Shown: piece after piece, positions 35,510 to 47,590 of the stretch | Layout of the letters: every line of letters begins with the position of its first letter | How positions within the stretch are numbered: position 1 is the stretch's first letter | NCBI RefSeq assembly: GCF_007833795.1 | Contig: NZ_CP032702.1 | Span: 2,232,001 to 2,296,000, forward strand | Direction: 5' to 3' | Length of the DNA stretch: 64,000 nt | Origin: Candidatus Pantoea soli | GTDB lineage: Bacteria > Pseudomonadota > Gammaproteobacteria > Enterobacterales > Enterobacteriaceae | Notes under the pieces: model-generated | Databases searched by the model: none | What the model was told of the DNA's origin: nothing | What the model saw: only the letters and a program-made list of their open reading frames with translations | Made by a program: the position numbers and the translations under genes

Positions 35510-35585
35510 TCCTCTGTAGTTCAGTCGGTAGAACGGCGGACTGTTAATCCGTATGTCACTGGTTCGAGTCCAGTCAGAGGAGCCA
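35510..35585 (+). tRNA. tRNA-Asn(GTT), copy 1
   Basis: 76 nt, equal to the E. coli tRNA-Asn as recalled. The anticodon is GTT within CTGTTAATC. Acceptor stem TCCTCTG / CAGAGGA, T-loop GGTTCGAGTCC, encoded CCA. Its 3' end is repeated at 44357, marking it as the attachment point of the Rhs island. Confidence 0.97.
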
Positions 35586-35632
35586 GATTCAGAAAAGCCC
35601 GCTCAGGGAAACCCGAGCGGGCTTTTTGCTTT
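35562..35632 (+). repeat. Left direct repeat of Rhs island (tRNA 3' end + terminator)
   Basis: 71 bp from the tRNA T-arm (GTTCGAGTCC) through the terminator to GCTTTTTGCTTT. The same 71 bp recur at 44357-44427 with two substitutions. att-like duplication inferred. Confidence 0.8.
35593..35627 (+). terminator. tRNA-Asn 1 terminator
   Basis: Stem AAAAGCCCGCTC / GAGCGGGCTTTT (35593-35604 with 35615-35626) followed by Ts. Confidence 0.88.
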
Positions 35633-35965
35633 CTGTCAATTGGTTAACCCTTCAAGCTTGTCCGCACAGGCTCTTAAAAACCCTCAGCTATACCCTTTTG
35701 CAGGTAAAAATACGGTTGAAACTGAATCGTTAATTTTCATCAAAATGTAAGTATCGATCGATTTTACAGATCGATAATTCGATGAGTCGTGTGATTAATC
35801 GACTGCTTTTGTATTTCAGGGCAGATATTTGCTCAACCAGCCTGCTTCTGAAAAGGTGTCTGACTCAGAACACGCAGCTTCCGCAGGCAAATAAAACCTC
35901 TGTATAGCAAGCCGTCTGCCCCTGTGGCACACTTAAACCGTCCTGAAGCATACGGAAGCTGCTTA
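35633..35965 (+). other. Left end of island, upstream region of the Eag-Rhs operon
   Basis: 333 bp without a supported gene. It includes nested ATCGAT repeats (ATCGATCGATTTTACAGATCGAT at about 35753-35775) and presumably the promoter for the Eag/Rhs genes. No integrase or excisionase gene is found here. Confidence 0.5.
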
Positions 35966-36403
35966 ATGTCTGAAAATCTCCCTCTCTGCGTTTTTACCGA
36001 AGGCCGCATCACCCTTCCCGATCACTATCAGGATCGCACCGTTAATGTCTTCGCCTTTCCCGGTGAGAATACGCCTGCTTTTAACATCTCCCGCGATTCG
36101 CTGAATGATGTCGAAACGCTGTCTGCTTACATTGATCGACAGTTAACGCTGATGCAGAAGCATCTGAAAGGCTGGAAGCAAACCGAACGGGTGCCTGCTG
36201 TGCTAGGCAATAACCTGTTGCAGGGTGAATGTGTGCATGCCAGCTACCTGCGTGACGGTAAGCGGATTTTCCAGCAACAGGCGGTATTCAACACCTCTGA
36301 AAACCACGTTCTGGTATTCACAATGACCTGCACCGCGATACTAACGGCCGGGAACAATCAACAGTTCCAGGCTCTGCTTGCCAGCTTTTCTTTTAACACC
36401 TGA
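35966..36403 (+). CDS. Eag chaperone (DUF1795) for Rhs effector
   Basis: 145 residues from ATG 35966 (MSENLPLCVFTEGRITLPDH). DcrB/DUF1795-like beta-rich fold: FNISRDSL...ETLSAYIDRQLTLMQKHLKGW and a C-terminal LVFTMTCTA strand. Eag proteins bind the N-terminal membrane helices of Rhs effectors and load them onto the type VI secretion VgrG-PAAR spike. It lies 18 bp upstream of the Rhs gene, as expected for its partner. Confidence 0.85.
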   Translation: MSENLPLCVFTEGRITLPDHYQDRTVNVFAFPGENTPAFNISRDSLNDVETLSAYIDRQLTLMQKHLKGWKQTERVPAVLGNNLLQGECVHASYLRDGKRIFQQQAVFNTSENHVLVFTMTCTAILTAGNNQQFQALLASFSFNT

Positions 36404-36421: not shown

Positions 36422-39400
36422 ATGTTTGAAGCGGCACGCGTGGGTGATGATATTGGCCATTCTCATGCGCTGGCAGGGATGATTGCCGGTACGATTGTCG
36501 GTGGACTGATTGCCGCAGCAGGGGGTATTGCCGCCGGGGCCTTGATGATTGCCGGTATCGGTGCGTCATGCCTGGGTATAGGTGTGCTGCTGGTCGGCAC
36601 CAGCCTGGCGGTGGGGTATTTTACGGGCGAACTGGCAACGAAGGCCAGAGACAGCATTGCGGATGCCGGGGCCGCCAGTATGGCGAAGGAAGGCATTATC
36701 GCCACCGGCTCGCATAACGTGTTCATTAATGGCAGACCTGCCGCCCTTGCCACCAATAGCATGGTGGAATGTGCCCGGGATGCTGGCTCTCAGCAGATGG
36801 CTGAAGGCTCCTCACGCGTTTACATCAATGGCCTGCCTGCTGCCCGCCTCGGCGATCAGACCACCTGTGGTGGTAAGGTCATGACCGGTTCCGCAGATGT
36901 GATTATCGGCGGTGAGCCGGAACAGACCCTGCCAATACAGTCAGAAGTCCCGGAATGGCTCTATAAAGCCTCTGACATGACGCTGTTATTTGCCGGACTG
37001 CTCGGTGGCGCGGGCGGAGCAGCAGGCAAAGTCGGGGCGCTGGGAAAACTGCTCAGTAAAATTCCGGGTATCAACAAACTGGCCCGCGTCGCCTGTCGCG
37101 CTGGTGTGCTGATGACCAGTGCCGCCGCCGTGGGGATTATCGCCCGCCCGGTCGACATTGTCAGCGGGCAGAAGTTTCTCGCCGGTGATGACGAACTGGA
37201 CTTTGTATTACTGTCCCGTCTGCCGGTTGTCTGGCAGCGTTACTGGCGCAGTGGTAATCCCGGCGACAGCGTGCTGGGCCGTGGCTGGTCACTTTTCTGG
37301 GAAACCCGACTTGAAAAATATCACGACGGGCTGGTGTGGCGTGCACCGTCCGGTGATTACGTTCCCTTTCCTCTCGTGCCGAAAGGACAGCGAACCTTCT
37401 GTGAACCGGAGAAGCGCTGGCTGGAACACCATCAGGACGATACCTGGTCAGTGTATGACATCAGCGGCGAACGCTGGTGTTACTCACCTCTGCGTAACAA
37501 TTCCCCTTCCCTGCCGCTGCGACTCACCGAACCCTGTGGTAACGATATTCTTTTTGACTGGAATGACGACCATACCCTGCATGCACTCACCGACAGCGCC
37601 GGGCAGCGCGTAGTCTGCCATTATCAGACCGCCAGTGGCCAAAACCGCCTTGCCGGAGTCTGGCTGGATGATGAAATCTGCCTGGTCAGCTACCGCTACG
37701 ATGACAAGGCCAGGCTGATGAGCGTCACCGGACGCGGCGGTCAGGTACGCCGCCGTTTCAGCTGGTATGACGACGGGGACGGTACGGATTTACTGCGCAG
37801 CCATGAGGACAGCAACGGGCTTCTGAATGAATACCTGTGGCGGAACATTGATGGTCTGCCGCGCGTGGTAGCATATCGCAACAGCGCGGGCGAGCAGCTT
37901 GATTTTGAATACGATTTTATGAACGGCACCCGTCGCGCCATCCGCGAAGATGGCGCACAGGCACACTGGCTGGTTGACGACGATGACGATGTTGCACGTT
38001 TCACCGATTATGACGGTCGCCAGACCGGCTTCGTCTGTCGTGATGGCGAGTTGTGCGACATTATCCTGCCCGATGGAGCCATGCGGCGCAGTCAGTGGGA
38101 CCGTTATGGCCGTCTCACGTCAGAAACTGACCCGGCAGGACGCACCACTGAGTATTACTGGTTCAGAAACACTGATCGCATTACCCGAACAGTTTTCCCG
38201 GATTCAACAGCCACTCAGTCTGTATATGACCTGAACGGTCGCCTGCTGTCGGAAACCGATGCACTGAATCACACCACCACGTATCACTACCCTGATGAAG
38301 AAGAAACGCTGCCTGACCGCATCACCGATGCGAGGGGCGGAGACGTGCTGCTGGTGTGGAACCATCAGGGACTGCTGACGCAACGCACTGACTGCTCCGG
38401 CAGCGTGACCCGCTTTACCTATGATCGGTTCGGTCAGCTTATCACCAGTGAGGACGCCGAAGGCAACCTCACACGCCGCGAATGGAACGATGCAGGACAG
38501 CTTACCGCCGTCATTCGGGCTGATGGCAGTCATGAAACGTTACGATGGAACGAGCATGGGCAACTTGCGGCCTGGCGAGACCCGCTGGAAAGTGAGGTTC
38601 GCTGGCACTATTCCGCGCTTGGACTGCCAGAAAGCGTTACCGACCGCACGGGACGAACCCGCCGCTGGCACTATGATCCGAGAGGCAATCTGCTGCGTCT
38701 GGAAAACGGCAACGGTGGCGAGTACCGTTTTACATATGACCCGACAGGCCACCCTCTGAGCGAAGACCGCCCGGACGACACCATCCGTCAGATGGAATGG
38801 AACGCGCGTGGACTGCTCACCACGCTGATGGAAAGCGGCAGGCCGGACGACGATGGCGGCATCCCGCGACGCGCTCAGCAGTTCAGCTATGACAGTAGCG
38901 GCCTGCTGACCACACGCACTACCCGTGATGCTCAGTACCATTACCAGCGTAACAACAGCGGGCAGCTTACCGGCCTGACCCGCAAGCCAACCGCCGATGG
39001 CATGGCGCGGGGAATTGAAGCAGATGAAATTCAGTTTACCTTTGACGCGGCAGGAAACCTGCTCGCTGAACAGGGAGCCAACGGTGAACTGCATTCTGCG
39101 TATGACGTTCTGGGTAATCTTACTGCGCTGACCCTGCCCGGCGGCCAGCAGATAAGCTGGCTGCATTACGGTTCCGGCCACGTCAGTGCCATCCGCTTTA
39201 ATCAGCAAATCATATCCGAATTGACCCGCGACCGCCTTCACAGGGAGGTGGCCCGCACTCAGGGAACCCGTGAACAGACCCGCCAGTATGACAGTCTCGG
39301 CAGACGTACCCGGCAGCGCAGCTTCACACCCGACCTGCCGGAACAGACAATCTTCGAACGCGCCTTCAGCTACACCGGGCGGGGGGAACTATCAGACGTC

Positions 39401-40633
39401 AGTGACACCCTGCGTGGCAATACAATTTATGGCTATGATGAGGAAGGCCGTTTTCTCAGGCACTACGAAGCCCGCCCGGACCACACTAACAGGACGTTCC
39501 GCTACGACGCTGCGGATAACCTGCTGCCGGATAATGACCTCCCTGCCCTGCCGCTGAGGGATAACCGCCTGACGCACTGGCAGAACCTGTTTATGAAATA
39601 TGACTGGTGGGGTAACCTCGTCAGTCGCCGAAGTGGTCTGTATGAACAGCATTATGAATACGACGCGGAAAACCGGCTGATACGGGCAGAAGGCACCGGA
39701 CCGGAAGGCCGATTTACCGCACACTACCATTATGATGGACTGGGCCGCCGCACCCGCAAGACGATCACCACACAACACGGCACCACGGAGACGCGCTTCC
39801 TCTGGCAGGGCTTGCGACTGTTGCAGGAACAGCAGCAGAACGGGCAATGCCAGACCTATGTTTACGACCCGAACGAAACATACAGCCCGCTGGCGCGTAT
39901 TGACCATTTGCGTGACGAAAATAGTGGGGAGGTTCTGTGGTTCACAACCGATCTGAACGGTGCACCGCTGGATATCACTGATGAACAGGGACAGCTCCGA
40001 TGGAGCGGTCATTACGGGAGTTTTGGTGAGGTTGCACGGCAGACGGAAGGCTTCCACAGACTCGCGCAGCAAACTGCCCTCGCTCATCAGCCACTGCGCT
40101 ATGCCGGGCAGTACGCGGACAATGAAACGGGTCTGCACTATAATCTTTTCAGGTATTACGATCCTAAGATTGGACGCTTTACGGTTCAAGACCCCATAGG
40201 ATTACAGGGAGGCTGGAATCTTTATCAGTATGCTCCGAATCCGCTGGGTTGGATTGATCCGTGGGGACTGTCAAGATATCCTGGGGTCGATTTCTCAGGA
40301 AGCGATGCACTTTATCCTCATGGTGAAAATATTGTAAAAATACCAATGACAGGCAGTCGTTATGGCGACTTTAAGGCAGCAAACGAATTGGCAAATTACA
40401 AAAACTCAGTTGGGAATATTACAGGTAAATCACATCCAGATGGCTATACCTGGCACCATTTAAATGATTATGATCCCATAACGAATACTTCTACCATGCA
40501 ACTTGTAGAGACAAGCGCTCATGAAGCCACTTTCCCTCACTCCGGCTCAGTGAGCCAATATGAACAGTATCATGGTGTTAAATATGAATCACTTGAAGCC
40601 AAGAAAACTGCAAAATCATTGAATTGTAAATAG
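36422..40633 (+). CDS. PAAR-Rhs polymorphic toxin with WHH nuclease tip
   Basis: 1403 residues. Two N-terminal membrane helices (about 17-70) are followed by a PAAR-like domain (about 90-170: GSHNVFINGRPAALATNS, GLPAARLGDQTTCGG) and another helix pair (185-240). A long YD-repeat Rhs shell ends at residues 1240-1281 with the hyperconserved FRYYDPKIGRFTVQDPIG and NPLGWIDPWGL. The tip (1283-1403) contains GYTWHHLNDYDP...MQLVETSAHEATFPHSG with Trp1344-His-His, the WHH variant of HNH/EndoVII nucleases. It is probably a type VI-delivered DNase. No T6SS structural gene is in the window. The tip and everything after it are AT-rich, unlike the shell, as usual for exchanged tips. Confidence 0.93.
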   Translation: MFEAARVGDDIGHSHALAGMIAGTIVGGLIAAAGGIAAGALMIAGIGASCLGIGVLLVGTSLAVGYFTGELATKARDSIADAGAASMAKEGIIATGSHNVFINGRPAALATNSMVECARDAGSQQMAEGSSRVYINGLPAARLGDQTTCGGKVMTGSADVIIGGEPEQTLPIQSEVPEWLYKASDMTLLFAGLLGGAGGAAGKVGALGKLLSKIPGINKLARVACRAGVLMTSAAAVGIIARPVDIVSGQKFLAGDDELDFVLLSRLPVVWQRYWRSGNPGDSVLGRGWSLFWETRLEKYHDGLVWRAPSGDYVPFPLVPKGQRTFCEPEKRWLEHHQDDTWSVYDISGERWCYSPLRNNSPSLPLRLTEPCGNDILFDWNDDHTLHALTDSAGQRVVCHYQTASGQNRLAGVWLDDEICLVSYRYDDKARLMSVTGRGGQVRRRFSWYDDGDGTDLLRSHEDSNGLLNEYLWRNIDGLPRVVAYRNSAGEQLDFEYDFMNGTRRAIREDGAQAHWLVDDDDDVARFTDYDGRQTGFVCRDGELCDIILPDGAMRRSQWDRYGRLTSETDPAGRTTEYYWFRNTDRITRTVFPDSTATQSVYDLNGRLLSETDALNHTTTYHYPDEEETLPDRITDARGGDVLLVWNHQGLLTQRTDCSGSVTRFTYDRFGQLITSEDAEGNLTRREWNDAGQLTAVIRADGSHETLRWNEHGQLAAWRDPLESEVRWHYSALGLPESVTDRTGRTRRWHYDPRGNLLRLENGNGGEYRFTYDPTGHPLSEDRPDDTIRQMEWNARGLLTTLMESGRPDDDGGIPRRAQQFSYDSSGLLTTRTTRDAQYHYQRNNSGQLTGLTRKPTADGMARGIEADEIQFTFDAAGNLLAEQGANGELHSAYDVLGNLTALTLPGGQQISWLHYGSGHVSAIRFNQQIISELTRDRLHREVARTQGTREQTRQYDSLGRRTRQRSFTPDLPEQTIFERAFSYTGRGELSDVSDTLRGNTIYGYDEEGRFLRHYEARPDHTNRTFRYDAADNLLPDNDLPALPLRDNRLTHWQNLFMKYDWWGNLVSRRSGLYEQHYEYDAENRLIRAEGTGPEGRFTAHYHYDGLGRRTRKTITTQHGTTETRFLWQGLRLLQEQQQNGQCQTYVYDPNETYSPLARIDHLRDENSGEVLWFTTDLNGAPLDITDEQGQLRWSGHYGSFGEVARQTEGFHRLAQQTALAHQPLRYAGQYADNETGLHYNLFRYYDPKIGRFTVQDPIGLQGGWNLYQYAPNPLGWIDPWGLSRYPGVDFSGSDALYPHGENIVKIPMTGSRYGDFKAANELANYKNSVGNITGKSHPDGYTWHHLNDYDPITNTSTMQLVETSAHEATFPHSGSVSQYEQYHGVKYESLEAKKTAKSLNCK
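40022..40266 (+). repeat. Rhs core 3' segment, master copy
   Basis: 245 bp that recur nearly unchanged and without gaps at 42748-42992 (constant offset 2726). It encodes the end of the Rhs shell through NPLGWIDPWG. Decayed relatives are at 41935-42075 and 43785-43978. This is the homology used for tip exchange. Confidence 0.88.
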
Positions 40634-40644
40634 TGAGGTACATT

Positions 40645-41034
40645 ATGCAATCAGAAGACTTAAAATTTTATGAAGATGATGAAGGCATTGCTGTCGATTT
40701 GAAGTTGAAAGCATTCGGTCCGGATGAAGTACAATGTGTTAATCTTGAATCTGAACTATCAGATAAAAAGATGGAAAATGATATACTCTGTTTAATTAAT
40801 CACCAAAATGAATTTTCACAAAAAATTCAAAAAGCAGCTCATGAGTATTGTATTAAAATTTACAATCAAAAGCCGTCTGATCTTAAACTTATAAAAATTT
40901 ACATCTTCCCAGATAAAGAAAATGAATATGGTTTTATGTTCTCCACAAAAATTGATAGTGAGCATGGAGTTGGTGTAAAAATGATAAATGGAAATATAGA
41001 AAAAATTGGCAGTAGTGAAACGGCATTTTTGTAA
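40645..41034 (+). CDS. Putative immunity protein for the WHH tip
   Basis: 129 residues from ATG 40645, 11 bp after the rhs stop, with GTGAGGT upstream. Acidic and AT-rich (MQSEDLKFYEDDEGIAVDLK...). Position directly behind the toxin tip, size, charge and base composition are those of a cognate immunity protein. It is not similar to the SUKH protein that follows the second WHH tip. Family not recognised. Confidence 0.7.
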   Translation: MQSEDLKFYEDDEGIAVDLKLKAFGPDEVQCVNLESELSDKKMENDILCLINHQNEFSQKIQKAAHEYCIKIYNQKPSDLKLIKIYIFPDKENEYGFMFSTKIDSEHGVGVKMINGNIEKIGSSETAFL

Positions 41035-41080
41035 AATATCTCTATATTCAATAAAATAAATAAAATATCGTAGAAAATTG

Positions 41081-41123
41081 AACTGTACCTTAATATAGAC
41101 AATATATTAAGGTACAGTTTTTA
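41081..41123 (+). terminator. Terminator after the rhs-immunity pair
   Basis: Perfect 17-bp stem AACTGTACCTTAATATA / TATATTAAGGTACAGTT (41081-41097 with 41103-41119) with a 5-base loop, followed by TTTTTA. It probably ends the Eag-Rhs-immunity operon, leaving the downstream modules without this promoter. Confidence 0.85.
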
Positions 41124-41186
41124 CATTAACAACAGATTTTGTTAGAGTTGAAATTTTTCGATTCGCATTTAATATAATTTTTAACA

Positions 41187-41474
41187 TTGGATGTCAATCC
41201 GGATGTAACTATAAGTTATTCTGGTGATTCCGTTCTTGACTTTCAGTCAGCAAATGAAATCGCCGATCTTATTCAAAAATCTACTCCAGAAGGCTATGTA
41301 TGGCACCATTTAGATGATTATGGCCCTAAAATCAACACAGGTACGAGGCAACTTGTAGAACAGAATGCGCATTCAGGAATTCCCCATAGCGGCGGTGTAA
41401 TTCAATATAAAGCTGCTACTGGAAAAAGCTATACACCCCCAGCGAAATTCGGAGAAAAAAAATCATATTCTTAG
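41187..41474 (+). pseudogene. Orphan Rhs tip with WHH nuclease motif
   Basis: An open frame (first possible start TTG 41187) encodes a toxin tip with no Rhs core: NPDVTISYSGDSVLDFQSANE...EGYVWHHLDDYGPKINTGTRQLVEQNAHSGIPHSG. It parallels the tip of the full Rhs protein (GYTWHHLNDYDP...QLVETSAHEATFPHSG) but differs widely elsewhere. No ribosome site or core homology precedes it, so it should be silent unless recombined onto the core. Confidence 0.75.
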
Positions 41475-42057
41475 TTTTGGAAGAATCGGAAAAAAAATTA
41501 TTTTAGATGATATAATAAGTTTTGAAACTTCTAATAAGATAGCTTTACCAATAGATTTTATTGATTTTTATTTGAGAAATAATAGTGGCTATTTGCCCAA
41601 AGAAAATGAGCCTAAACCATTTCTGCTTGGTGGCTTTTTGTCATTTTCCCATGGGAAACTCCCAATTGAAAAACGCTACAAAGAATTATTAGAAGATTGG
41701 CCTAATCTTTTAGGTATGATTCCATTCGCATATGATGATGGTGAAAACCTATTTCTAATATCTACTGTTTCAGAAAGTTATGGTGAAGTGAAAATCTGGC
41801 TCATTGACGAAAATGAGTTAGATATAGTCTCAGCGTCGTTTTCATCATTCATCAATAAACTGAAAAAAAAATTGATTTATTTCATTCTAAACTGGTGCAT
41901 CAGGTATCTGCACCAGTCCATGTTCGCCAAAAAGACAAATCGCCAGCTATCATTCCCGGAATTACGATCCTCAAAATGGTCGCTTTACGGAACAGGACCC
42001 TATAGGATTGCCGGGCGGCTGGAACCTTTACAGTATGCACCGAATCCGCTGGGTTAA
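41467..42057 (+). pseudogene. SUKH (SMI1/KNR4) immunity gene without canonical start, running into core debris
   Basis: The frame is open from before 41467 and matches SUKH immunity proteins: ISFETSNKIALPIDFIDFYLRNNSG, KPFLLGGFLSFS and LIGMIPFAYDDGENLFLIS-like. No ATG or GTG exists upstream in frame; only ATT 41467 or an internal TTG 41572 could start it. After residue about 135 the frame continues through Rhs core debris to 42057, so the native stop is probably lost in a poly-A frameshift near 41870. It partners the orphan WHH tip. A second, more decayed copy lies at 44098-44325. Confidence 0.7.
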
Positions 42058-42075
42058 ATTGACCTGTAAGGGCTG
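41935..42075 (+). pseudogene. Decayed Rhs core 3' remnant, different lineage
   Basis: One frame reads ASYHSRNYDPQNGRFTEQDP then IGLPGGWNLY, the Rhs core end with residues unlike the master copy (which has PKIGRFTVQDPIGLQGG). A base is missing after AACCTTTA, and the WIDP stretch carries a stop (TAA 42067-42069). It leads in frame into the TNT tip. Confidence 0.75.
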
Positions 42076-42411
42076 AGTACCGAACTCGTTTCATACTGGC
42101 CACCAAATGATGGTGCTTATGGTGAAACCAAAATTTCATTTTTGGAGCCTGGAAAAATAATTTTTCGTTATGGATATCCGGGGGGTACATATACTTCACC
42201 GGTTGGTACACCATATTCGATGTGTGCATTGCCCGTTGCGAATAATAATAAAGATTATACTGTTTATGAACTTCTTAAACCCATGACAAATGTACAGAAA
42301 AGCAAAATTGCTCCCTGGTTTGGTGAAATCGGCTTGGGGACGCAGTATAAATTATGTCAATCAGTGCGGAAATACGTAGATTCTGGACACCTGAAAGAAA
42401 TAAAAAAATAA
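42070..42411 (+). pseudogene. Orphan Rhs tip with TNT-type NAD glycohydrolase domain
   Basis: About 113 codons, open from the stop at 42069 to TAA 42411. It matches the TNT (tuberculosis necrotising toxin) fold pattern: WPPNDGAYGETKISFLEPGK, IFRYGYPGGTYTSPVGTPYS, LLKPMTNVQKSKIAPWFGE and GLGTQYKL. TNT toxins cleave NAD(P)+. It is cut off from a working core by frameshift and stop, so it is stored or dead rather than expressed as part of Rhs. Immunity gene follows at 42423. Confidence 0.78.
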
Positions 42412-42422
42412 AGGAAAATCTT

Positions 42423-42644
42423 GTGGATAAAGAAGAATTGATAAAAAATCTGAATAAATTGAGCATCCCAAATGATAGCTATTCTATTGGAAGCATTGAG
42501 GACGAAGCCCTGTGTATGATCTTTGATGGCTTGACGTGGTGTATTTTTTATAGTGAGAAAGGACATCGTACGGAACCCGAATATTTTGCAAGCGAAAATG
42601 ATGCCTGTCATGCTTTTATAAACCGAATTAAAAAATGGTTTTGA
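42423..42644 (+). CDS. Putative immunity protein for the TNT tip
   Basis: 73 residues from GTG 42423 (VDKEELIKNLNKLSIPNDSY...), with AAGGAAAAT upstream and 11 bp after the TNT stop; the longer frame starting inside the toxin is unlikely. Small, AT-rich, ending HAFINRIKKWF. Order and spacing suggest the cognate antitoxin. Still intact although the toxin's core is broken. Confidence 0.65.
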   Translation: MDKEELIKNLNKLSIPNDSYSIGSIEDEALCMIFDGLTWCIFYSEKGHRTEPEYFASENDACHAFINRIKKWF

Positions 42645-42747
42645 TTTTTTAGCATCATCATAAATCCTCTTTCATGCCCAAAAAAGGTGGCAATGAATCG
42701 TGTATTGTGAATTGGGACAGATCCTGTGGAGCTGGCAGTGTGTGGGC

Positions 42748-42992
42748 TTTGGCGAGGTTGCATCACAGATGGAAGGTTTCCACAGATTCACGCAACAAAC
42801 TGCCCTCGCTCATCAGCCATTGCGCTATGCCGGGCAGTACGCAGACAGTGAAACGGGTCTGCACTATAATCTTTTCAGGTATTACGATCCTCAGATTGGA
42901 CGCTTTACGGTACAGGACCCCATAGGATTACAGGGAGGCTGGAATCTTTATCAGTATGCTCCGAATCCGCTGGGTTGGATTGATCCGTGGGG
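42748..42992 (+). repeat. Rhs core 3' segment, second copy
   Basis: Ungapped near-copy of 40022-40266 (offset 2726). It encodes GFHRFTQQTALAHQPLRYAG...YYDPQIGRFTVQDPIG to NPLGWIDPWGL. Conservation this high, beside two decayed copies, suggests recent duplication or gene conversion with the master core. Confidence 0.88.
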
Positions 42993-43307
42993 GTTAACAT
43001 CACGGAGAGCGGCATTCAGAACGGCAAAAGAACAGGCAAAAATTCCTAAAAGTAGCCAGTTTACAACACACAAATATGTTTACGATAACGATGTTGAAAA
43101 CAGGACTGTCTGCGAATTTGATGTTAATAGTAGTAAAAATATGTTGTCCTCCACGAAGAGGATAAATTTGGGCGAGGGCCACATTTCCATGCTGCGGATG
43201 ACCTGAGAAACAATCCAATGGAAAAAGGAAAATACAATCAATACCCAAGCCATCACCCTGAAGATGTTAATGGATTTAATTCTAAAAAAAAGATGAGCTG
43301 CTCATGA
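42748..43307 (+). pseudogene. Truncated Rhs core with frameshifted HNH-like toxin tip
   Basis: The core end continues in frame into the tip TSRRAAFRTAKEQAKIPKSSQF...YDNDVENRTVCEFDVNSSKN, then shifts near 43140. The rest reads in another frame: EEDKFGRGPHFHAADDL and YNQYPSHHPEDVNGFN, ending in TGA 43305-43307. The GRGPHFHAADD plus SHHPED pattern is typical of HNH-like polymorphic toxin tips. One base change could restore the full tip. It overlaps the immunity start by ATGA. Confidence 0.75.
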
Positions 43308-43762
43308 AAAAAGAATTATCAAGAATTGAGGCACTAAAAGAAAAAATTGATCAAAAGAAAATTGCGTTAGATATATTTGGAGAAAAAGAAGGAAACTTCA
43401 TCTTTCTTGATAGCATTTCATCCAGGGAAATTATTTTACAAGCCGATAAAATAGCATACAAAAACATCATAACCAGAATAAAAAAAGAAGACGACAAATC
43501 AAATGATATCATCAAAAAATTTGACTTGATGGTGTTTGATTTGTCAAGCTCAAATCTCTCAGATATATCGTTTTTTGTTTTCAGCGAAAAAATATACGAT
43601 GTAACAACTTCTGTACCTGTTTTTTTAAGTGTTTATGAGAAAATAAAAAATAAATCAAGCTATCATGATATTATCATTCACAGTAAAAATTTAAATTTTG
43701 GATTATGCTTACTCCTTGATGAACATTATATCTCCATCTCGCACTGGAAAAATAATAGTTAA
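43304..43762 (+). CDS. Putative immunity protein for the HNH-like tip
   Basis: 152 residues from ATG 43304, overlapping the toxin stop as ATGA. Lys/Ile/Asp-rich and very AT-rich (MKKELSRIEALKEKIDQKKI...). Soluble. Order and coupling imply the cognate immunity protein; family not recognised. Intact despite the toxin frameshift. Confidence 0.65.
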   Translation: MKKELSRIEALKEKIDQKKIALDIFGEKEGNFIFLDSISSREIILQADKIAYKNIITRIKKEDDKSNDIIKKFDLMVFDLSSSNLSDISFFVFSEKIYDVTTSVPVFLSVYEKIKNKSSYHDIIIHSKNLNFGLCLLLDEHYISISHWKNNS

Positions 43763-43784
43763 CTTTCTCATGGAGGCAAATTTA

Positions 43785-43978
43785 GCGATATGCCTGGCTC
43801 ATCAGCTGCTGCGCTACGCCAGGCATTACACTGACAGTGAAACCGGGCTGCACTACAATTTTTTTCAGCTATTACGACCCGCGGATTGGGCGGTTTACGA
43901 TGCATGACCCGATAAGATTAATGGGAGTCTGGAACCTTTATCGATATGCGCCGAATCCGTTAAAATGGATTGATTAAC
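43785..43978 (+). pseudogene. Decayed Rhs core 3' remnant
   Basis: Frames combine to LAHQLLRYARHYTDSETGLH, then YYDPRIGRFTMHDPIRLMGV and WNLYRYAPNPLKWID followed by a stop. An extra T in the TTTTTT run and the stop after WID disable it. No toxin tip follows directly. Confidence 0.75.
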
Positions 43979-44097
43979 CTGGATTGGCTGTTAATCCTGT
44001 TTCCAGAATACCATTTAGAATAATTATAAAATAACATTAACTTATAAGACATGTAACGCCATGAAAATTATAACCATTTTACTTTACCAAAGGATCT

Positions 44098-44325
44098 TAT
44101 TGATTTTTTATTTGAAAGATAATGGCATTTATTTACCCAAAGAAGATGAATAAAAACCTTTCTTACTTGGTGGCTTTTCTTTTTTTCCATGGGGAAATTT
44201 CACTTGAGAAACGCCACAAAAAACTGTTAGAAGATTGGTCTAATCTTATAGGTATGATTTCATTCGCCTATAATGATGGTGGAAACCTATTTCTGATATC
44301 TGCTTTTTCAGATAGTTTTTTGTAA
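44098..44325 (+). pseudogene. SUKH immunity remnant
   Basis: Translated with two in-frame stops it reads LKDNGIYLPKEDE.KPFLLGGF and LLEDWSNLIGMISFAYNDGG then NLFLISAFSDSF. It is clearly a second copy of the SUKH gene at 41467 but lacks both ends. Sequence between 43979 and 44097 holds nothing recognisable. Confidence 0.75.
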
Positions 44326-44356
44326 GGTTAAGCTCTGACTCACTAATGAAAATGAA

Positions 44357-44427
44357 GTTCGAGTGCAGTCAGAGGAGCCAGATTCAGAAAAGCCCGCTCA
44401 GGGAAAACCGAGCGGGCTTTTTGCTTT
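44357..44427 (+). repeat. Right direct repeat of Rhs island (att-like)
   Basis: 71 bp matching 35562-35632 at 69 positions. It includes the tRNA-Asn T-arm, acceptor 3' strand, CCA and the whole terminator hairpin. It is not a complete tRNA. It marks the right edge of the inserted segment. Confidence 0.8.
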
Positions 44428-47514: not shown

Positions 47515-47590
47515 TCCTCTGTAGTTCAGTCGGTAGAACGGCGGACTGTTAATCCGTATGTCACTGGTTCGAGTCCAGTCAGAGGAGCCA
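47515..47590 (+). tRNA. tRNA-Asn(GTT), copy 2
   Basis: 76 nt, identical to the copy at 35510-35585, with its own promoter and a terminator at 47598-47632 (AAAAGCCCGC / GCGGGCTTTT). E. coli also carries several asn tRNAs between mtfA and amn. Confidence 0.97.

What the first reader, a model, noticed from the sequence alone, without database searches (positions are those of the whole stretch)
40267..44340. Storage array of displaced Rhs toxin tips and immunity genes
Behind the working Rhs gene lie, in order: its own immunity gene, an orphan WHH tip with SUKH immunity, a TNT tip with immunity, an HNH-like tip (one frameshift) with immunity, and a SUKH remnant, separated by four generations of core 3' ends. 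One core copy is an ungapped match over 245 bp to the active core. This records successive tip replacement and could allow switching back by recombination.
Basis: partly seen in the sequence, partly recalled or inferred. Interest (0 to 1): 0.76.

Follow-up and report, generated by a model that had tools for sequence, protein, structure and literature searches.

The report
Graveyard of swapped-out Rhs toxin tips
Behind a bacterial killing gene lie the worn-out toxin ends and antidote genes it probably carried before, a well-known kind of arrangement; here the old toxin ends look broken, so they read as history and possibly spare antidotes rather than a working stock of weapons.

Summary
The array is real. 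Behind an intact PAAR-Rhs gene (36422-40633, WHH tip) and its immunity gene lie displaced modules: WHH tip + SUKH, TNT tip + small immunity gene, HNH-like tip + YxiF-like immunity gene, and a SUKH remnant. There are three displaced core ends plus the active one; the WHH/SUKH module has none. The 245-bp ungapped core match is confirmed at 92.7% identity. Relatives support successive displacement: two of the three tips displaced here sit on cores in other genomes, tips displaced in two relatives are active in others, and another genus carries the same run of modules (imm1, WHH, SUKH, TNT remnant, TNT immunity) in the same order. This is rhs C-terminal displacement, published in 2009; switching back was shown in Salmonella in 2014. 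Switching back is not supported here: the displaced tips are truncated without a core, cut off by a frameshift and stops at the core-tip junction, or frameshifted. Two of three displaced immunity genes are full length, too weak a contrast to prove selection. An addition: the whole locus lies between a tRNA-Asn and a 71-bp repeat of its 3' end, as in an integrative island without its integrase. Ordinary in kind.

The parts
35510..35585 (+). tRNA-Asn (gtt), left border of the island
   Evidence: ARAGORN; Rfam RF00005
35562..35632 (+). left copy of the 71-nt repeat: tRNA-Asn 3' end plus terminator (attL-like)
   Evidence: in many of the listed same-genus matches homology ends at query 231-239, that is 35630-35638
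35633..35715 (+). 83 nt resembling the stretch after tRNA-Asn in G010 and in G012, where a tyrosine integrase follows; no integrase here
   Evidence: scores 43 and 40, best of 500 base shuffles 24 in each; integrase Pfam
35924..36403 (+). DcrB-family gene, presumed Rhs chaperone/adaptor (role recalled)
   Evidence: PF08786 E 7e-36
36422..40633 (+). intact Rhs effector: prePAAR/PAAR, RHS repeats, core ending at 40270, then a 120-residue WHH nuclease tip
40633..41034 (+). cognate immunity gene imm1 (DUF6985)
   Evidence: PF22481 27.2 bits, cut-off 24.5; 76% aa identity in ErVv1 behind the same tip
41081..41119 (.). strong hairpin between imm1 and the displaced modules; listed as terminator-like on the minus strand only
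   Evidence: -23.3 kcal/mol, z -7.15
41187..41474 (+). displaced WHH tip, N-terminally truncated, no core end found before it
   Evidence: PF14414
41476..41898 (+). SUKH-family immunity gene of the displaced WHH tip; domain complete, canonical start codon lacking
   Evidence: PF09346
41949..42075 (+). displaced core 3' end 1, frameshifted, stops at the junction
42076..42411 (+). displaced TNT tip
   Evidence: PF14021
42423..42644 (+). small immunity gene imm3 (73 aa; one relative, P0007, is named Immunity protein 35 domain-containing in UniRef)
42708..42996 (+). displaced core 3' end 2 (42752-42996 ungapped, 92.7% to active core)
42997..43303 (+). displaced HNH-like tip, broken by a frameshift (open to 43206, rest in another frame)
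43304..43762 (+). immunity gene imm4 (YxiF-like, below cut-off; 152 aa, three relatives of 151-153 aa)
43793..43986 (+). displaced core 3' end 3, no tip recognised behind it
44014..44355 (+). second SUKH copy, decayed; its similarity stops at the right repeat
44357..44427 (+). right copy of the 71-nt repeat (attR-like), 69 of 71 identical

Best explanation
This is an rhs locus shaped by repeated C-terminal displacement. An incoming piece carrying [core 3' end + tip + immunity gene] recombines with the resident core by homology on its left side and joins on its right side upstream of, or inside, the old tip, so the new tip becomes the expressed one and the old tip and immunity gene are pushed downstream, away from the gene's start and export parts. 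At least three earlier tips are recorded. The latest event (the current WHH tip) may have joined inside the old WHH tip, which would explain why that module lacks a core end and its N-terminus. The toxins then decay; some immunity genes stay open and may still protect. Shown: anatomy, homology, decay, two of the tips attached elsewhere, shared module order with another genus. Inferred: order of events, joining mechanism, any protection, silence of the displaced genes.
For: Anatomy. Two of three displaced tips sit on cores elsewhere: WHH2 + SUKH on an open 1430-aa frame in G002 (62% and 42-43%); TNT on an open 1364-aa frame in G006, cut by the contig end (65%). The current tip and imm1 follow an rhs core in Erwinia sp. 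ErVv1 (96% and 76% aa). In other loci (by eye, tails printed) a tip displaced in E. oleae is active in E. typographi, and one displaced in G002 is active in Ewingella. In a tree of 20 core-end rows the own active end and two of its three displaced ends form a clade (98/97), as do the E. oleae pair (96/94) and three G002 ends (98/95). G228, another genus, has the same module order. The genome has a T6SS gene, VasE/TssK.
Against: One genome per species, so no before/after pair. The displaced WHH module has no core end, which insertion of a circle by a single crossover does not predict without a later deletion. In the tree, core remnant 3 is a long branch of unsure place and the two G011 ends are not sisters. 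The ErVv1 assembly is broken up over its rhs genes. The HNH-like tip was not found on a core (2 of 61 genomes match, own and one displaced). In G228 the core remnants lie at other places in the run than here, several other ORFs lie between its active gene and the imm1 homologue, and the TNT remnant is weak (32% over 63 residues).
Confidence: 0.9

Rival explanations
1. Functional storage: the displaced tips are a working reserve and cells switch back to them by recombination between core copies.
For: Switching of this kind was shown in Salmonella over 522 bp of 95% identity (PMC3967940, passages). Here one core copy keeps 245 bp at 92.7%, longest exact run 77 bp, enough for recombination in principle (recalled).
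Against: The three displaced tips are broken or lack a usable core. A crossover at the one good core copy would join a frameshifted tip and delete imm1, SUKH and imm3 (inference from the map).
Confidence: 0.05
2. Immunity archive (compatible with the best explanation): the displaced immunity genes are kept by selection because they protect against relatives that still deploy the old tips, while the tips decay.
For: Two of three displaced immunity genes are full length (imm3, imm4) against none of three displaced tips. G228 keeps an imm1 homologue with no separate WHH match in front of it, and a full-length imm3 behind a TNT remnant. Protection by an orphan Rhs immunity protein against a TNT-like tip was shown in Serratia (PMC10539506, passages); immunity arrays are described in Vibrio (PMC5361080, passages).
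Against: The neutral simulation (substitutions only, 2000 runs each) does not exclude chance: imm3 stays open in 28% of runs at 0.22 changes per site (the TNT remnant's branch); imm4 in 82% and 60% at 0.013 and 0.034 (branches of its own remnant), 7% at 0.22; SUKH 1 in 8% at 0.22. Synonymous sites are saturated in 18 of 29 pairs computed, and the displaced tips show low ratios too (0.18-0.19). SUKH 1 lacks a canonical start and SUKH 2 is decayed. Promoter-like sites are no more frequent than in shuffles.
Confidence: 0.4
3. Block arrival (compatible with displacement): the locus came as a ready-made island at tRNA-Asn, so the displacements happened elsewhere.
For: 71-bp repeat of the tRNA-Asn 3' end at both borders; no rhs DNA match in the stretches read at 27 same-genus tRNA-Asn sites; near-empty sites in G007 and G027; left-end sequence like that in front of an integrase in G012.
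Against: No integrase was recognised in the island. Two displaced cores group with the resident active core, which says only that they share a lineage.
Confidence: 0.45

Closest known systems
rhs C-terminal displacement arrays of Enterobacteriaceae (Jackson 2009, PMC2935791; passages)
   Same: Active rhs followed by strings of dissociated tips with core fragments of the same clade.
   Different: A passage there reports core regions always identical within a locus; here the closest differs by 7%. One module has no core end. The word tRNA does not occur in that paper's held text.
Orphan rhs of Salmonella Typhimurium LT2 (Koskiniemi 2014, PMC3967940; passages)
   Same: Main rhs plus displaced tip and immunity gene sharing core homology.
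   Different: There the displaced tip is functional and recombines onto the main gene; here the tips are broken and the homology is shorter.
Snodgrassella alvi Rhs loci (Steele 2017 PMC5727410, Steele 2021 PMC8125069; passages)
   Same: Arrays with orphan tips and immunity genes; two S. alvi contigs fetched here carry a relative of the current WHH tip and imm1 (L044, L046).
   Different: The 2017 passages say many S. alvi orphan tips are transcribed and active.
[quoted passage not shown] passages) and orphan Rhs immunity in Serratia (PMC10539506; passages)
   Same: Old effectors displaced, immunity genes kept downstream; a model with homology on one side and illegitimate joining on the other.
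   Different: Here remnants of the tips are still present and protection is untested.

Membership tests
rhs locus with C-terminal displacement | Intact rhs gene with conserved core ending in a DPxGL-type motif and a variable tip | tested here: met
   core ends ...WIDPWGL at residue 1283, then the WHH tip
rhs locus with C-terminal displacement | Downstream unrelated tips preceded by a fragment of the same core | tested here: met
   three core remnants; the displaced WHH tip is an exception
rhs locus with C-terminal displacement | Displaced tips occur as attached tips elsewhere | tested here: met
   for two of three: WHH2 in G002, TNT in G006; not found for the HNH-like tip
T6SS PAAR-Rhs effector | PAAR domain, with T6SS genes in the genome | tested here: met
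   PF05488 E 4.8e-19 and PF25799; one T6SS family searched and found, PF05936 486.8 bits
Switchable orphan tip (Salmonella type) | Displaced tip intact and in frame with a homologous core fragment | tested here: not met
tRNA integrative genomic island | Direct repeat of the tRNA 3' end at both borders | tested here: met
   69 of 71 nt
tRNA integrative genomic island | Integrase gene | tested here: not met
   none seen among the ORFs of 60 aa or more and the ten proteins given to Pfam; the smaller ORFs were not each searched
Orphan immunity array | Displaced immunity genes expressed and protective | not testable with these tools
   needs bench work

The most novel reading that the evidence does not exclude
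The array is a slowly decaying, order-preserving immunity archive that persists across genera as a block and moves as a tRNA-Asn island: tips rot but the antidotes of past weapons are kept, so the order of antidotes records which weapons a lineage has met.
Probability: 0.15. Interest if true: 0.5.

Novelty: new member of a known kind. Interest (0 to 1): 0.27.

Why it matters
It adds a clear case to a known process. Two details are useful: a similar run of displaced modules in another genus suggests that such arrays can keep their order over long times, and the displaced WHH tip without a core end favours one-sided homologous joining with an illegitimate right joint over insertion of a circle. 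The tRNA-Asn borders suggest how a whole rhs locus may move.

Tried and rejected
Selection on displaced immunity genes: synonymous sites were saturated in 18 of the 29 pairs computed, three further SUKH pairs were dropped because the G126 stretch held a stop, and the neutral simulation lacked power; left open. Concerted evolution of core copies: not supported, since the HNH remnant differs from the active core at 18 of 245 bases. Solved structures for imm3: none up to E 1. NCBIfam named none of the displaced tips or immunity genes at E 0.1 (the HNH piece matched only through its core part). Promoter-like sites in the array: 13 against a shuffle mean of 16.4, terminator-like 2 against 2.8, so no signal by count. 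The core-end tree used only rows with at least 200 aligned nt to the own active end, plus the three own remnants, so many shorter remnants, those of own locus 2 and of Snodgrassella among them, were left out. tRNA genes near other relatives' rhs: none by ARAGORN in L038, L040, L041, L042, L043, L045 or L100, L101, L104, L113, and no tRNA-Asn 3' end at up to 4 mismatches in L066, L067 or L070-L078; a tRNA-Asn lies before rhs in E. typographi (L037) and Ewingella (L039), and ErVv1 (L043) has an 89% match to the last 16 tRNA bases plus terminator about 0.8 kb before its dcrB match. A literature search for rhs + type VI secretion + tRNA-Asn + genomic island listed 2 papers, neither about such a locus by title and abstract start; a search for Pantoea + rhs + type VI secretion + orphan held 24, 15 listed, of which I saw passages of three: PMC3235180, PMC3942780 and PMC10539506. 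The word tRNA occurs in none of the three.

Tallies, own genome included: imm1 2 of 61 same-genus genomes, TNT tip 9 of 61, imm4 1 of 61, SUKH 2 of 61, WHH2 4 of 61 and 9 of 256 in the family, HNH-like piece 2 of 61, imm3 5 of 198 in the family; the family sets were drawn from a larger group.
Full report
Setting. The window lies in a contig of 3.76 Mb. The genus is the one that also holds G035, whose rhs core end is identical to that of a Pantoea rwandensis contig, so a Pantoea species is likely (inference). The intact gene 36422-40633 encodes 1403 residues with prePAAR and PAAR motifs, RHS repeats, and a WHH nuclease tip after the core end ...WIDPWGL. A DcrB-family gene precedes it, and imm1 (DUF6985) overlaps its stop. 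The genome has a VasE/TssK gene. It also has a second rhs locus at C1:612445-627603 with seven further core ends behind the first.

The observation. Core ends: active, then 41949-42075, 42708-42996 and 43793-43986. The 245-bp ungapped match is 40026-40270 against 42752-42996 with 18 mismatches. The displaced WHH tip (41187-41474) has no core end in front of it; against the attached tip in G002 about 36-38 N-terminal residues are missing. The SUKH gene behind it has a complete domain but no ATG, GTG or TTG in frame before 41572, and runs on into the next core remnant. The TNT tip covers its Pfam profile but is not in frame with its core remnant, which is frameshifted and followed by stops. The HNH-like tip is open to 43206 and continues in another frame, seen by eye against the open 109-aa tip of G034. 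The array ends with a second SUKH copy (265 of 334 aligned bases identical) that stops at the right-hand repeat.

What relatives show. WHH2 and a SUKH gene are on an open 1430-aa frame in G002, and the TNT tip on an open 1364-aa frame in G006 up to the contig end. The HNH-like tip was found in only one other of 61 genomes, and there displaced. The current tip and imm1 are behind an rhs core in Erwinia sp. ErVv1 at 96% and 76% identity, in an assembly that is broken up there. The pattern repeats elsewhere: by the tails printed, E. oleae's displaced tip is E. typographi's active one, and a tip displaced in G002 is Ewingella's active one. A tree of 20 core-end rows (18 different) groups the own active end with two of its three displaced ends (98/97), and likewise for E. 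oleae (96/94) and G002 (98/95); the third own remnant is a long branch of unsure place and the two G011 ends are not sisters.

A second genus. In G228, another genus of the family, behind a different active tip and several other ORFs, the array runs: imm1 homologue (52%), core remnant, WHH2 (59%), SUKH (44%), TNT remnant (32% over 63 residues), imm3 homologue (64%, full length), core remnant. The genes are in the order seen here; the core remnants are not all at the same places (here one lies between SUKH and TNT, there one lies before WHH2). What follows imm3 differs. imm1 was found in 2 of 61, WHH2 in 9 of 256 and imm3 in 5 of 198 genomes, so independent assembly of the same run seems unlikely (my estimate; no formal test).

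How it arose. One published model has homologous recombination at the core, through a circular intermediate, bring in a new tip and shunt the old one downstream (PMC2935791, passages); a variant has homology on one side and illegitimate joining on the other (PMC5361080, passages). The coreless, truncated WHH tip behind imm1 and its hairpin fits the second: the right joint would have fallen inside the old tip. The core remnants of the other modules begin about 290, 130 and 190 bp before the core end. This is inference from anatomy.

What it does now. I do not expect any displaced tip to return intact by a single crossover between cores. The longest exact runs shared with the last 1270 bases of the active core are 77 bp (HNH module), 16 bp (TNT module) and 10 bp (third). 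Two of three displaced immunity genes are full length against relatives. That would fit kept orphan immunity, as shown for a TNT-like Rhs tip in Serratia (PMC10539506, passages). But in the simulation imm3 stays open by chance in 28% of runs at the rate read from the TNT remnant (0.22), and imm4 in 82% and 60% at the rates read from its own remnant (0.013, 0.034); imm4 and SUKH 1 stay open in 7% and 8% at 0.22. Selection is therefore not shown. A hairpin of -23.3 kcal/mol (0 of 200 shuffles as good) lies between imm1 and the array; the pattern scan lists it as terminator-like on the minus strand only, and promoter-like sites are no more frequent than in shuffles.

Borders. The whole locus lies between tRNA-Asn 35510-35585 and a second copy of its 3' end plus terminator at 44357-44427, 69 of 71 bases identical. 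At 27 same-genus tRNA-Asn sites read, up to about 14 kb beyond the tRNA, none gave an rhs DNA match. Two (G007, G027) go almost straight from the tRNA into the right-flank genes; two (G009, G019) enter that flank further in; one (G029) has about 3.6 kb of other genes and then a degenerate copy of the repeat; in 22 the right flank was not seen within the stretch read. The 83 nt after the left repeat resemble the corresponding stretch in G010 and G012; G012 has a tyrosine integrase there (Phage_integrase E 4.3e-21), while in G010 I saw none by eye. No integrase was recognised here. The same rhs lineage lies about 160 bp behind a tRNA-Asn in Ewingella and about 3 kb behind one in E. typographi.

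Verdict. A genuine displacement array, a new member of a known kind. The storage-and-switching reading is not supported for this genome.

Noticed in passing
35562-35632 and 44357-44427: 71-nt direct repeat of the tRNA-Asn 3' end and terminator brackets the whole rhs locus, with an integrative-element-like left end and no integrase recognised.
   Followed up: yes
L067 (G000:C1:614000-632500): The same genome has a second rhs locus with seven more displaced core ends; one displaced HNH tip (Tox-HNH-EHHH) is followed about 115 bp on by two ORFs that look like an IS3-type transposase pair (name recalled), and an Ntox21 tip is present.
   Followed up: partly
47515-47590: A second complete tRNA-Asn 12 kb from the first; further matches to tRNA-Asn plus terminator lie at C1:2319027 and C1:2409059.
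   Followed up: no
P0005 (Pantoea ananatis): A 141-aa protein reads from part of the TNT tip straight into an imm3-like immunity protein in one frame.
   Followed up: no
L044 and L046 (Snodgrassella alvi): Snodgrassella arrays carry a relative of the current WHH tip and imm1 at about 71% and 66.5% DNA identity, so this module has crossed a wide taxonomic distance.
   Followed up: no
L030 (G029): The same tRNA-Asn slot holds about 3.6 kb with an AsnC-like regulator and a LysE-like exporter before a degenerate repeat copy (names from sequence, recalled).
   Followed up: no
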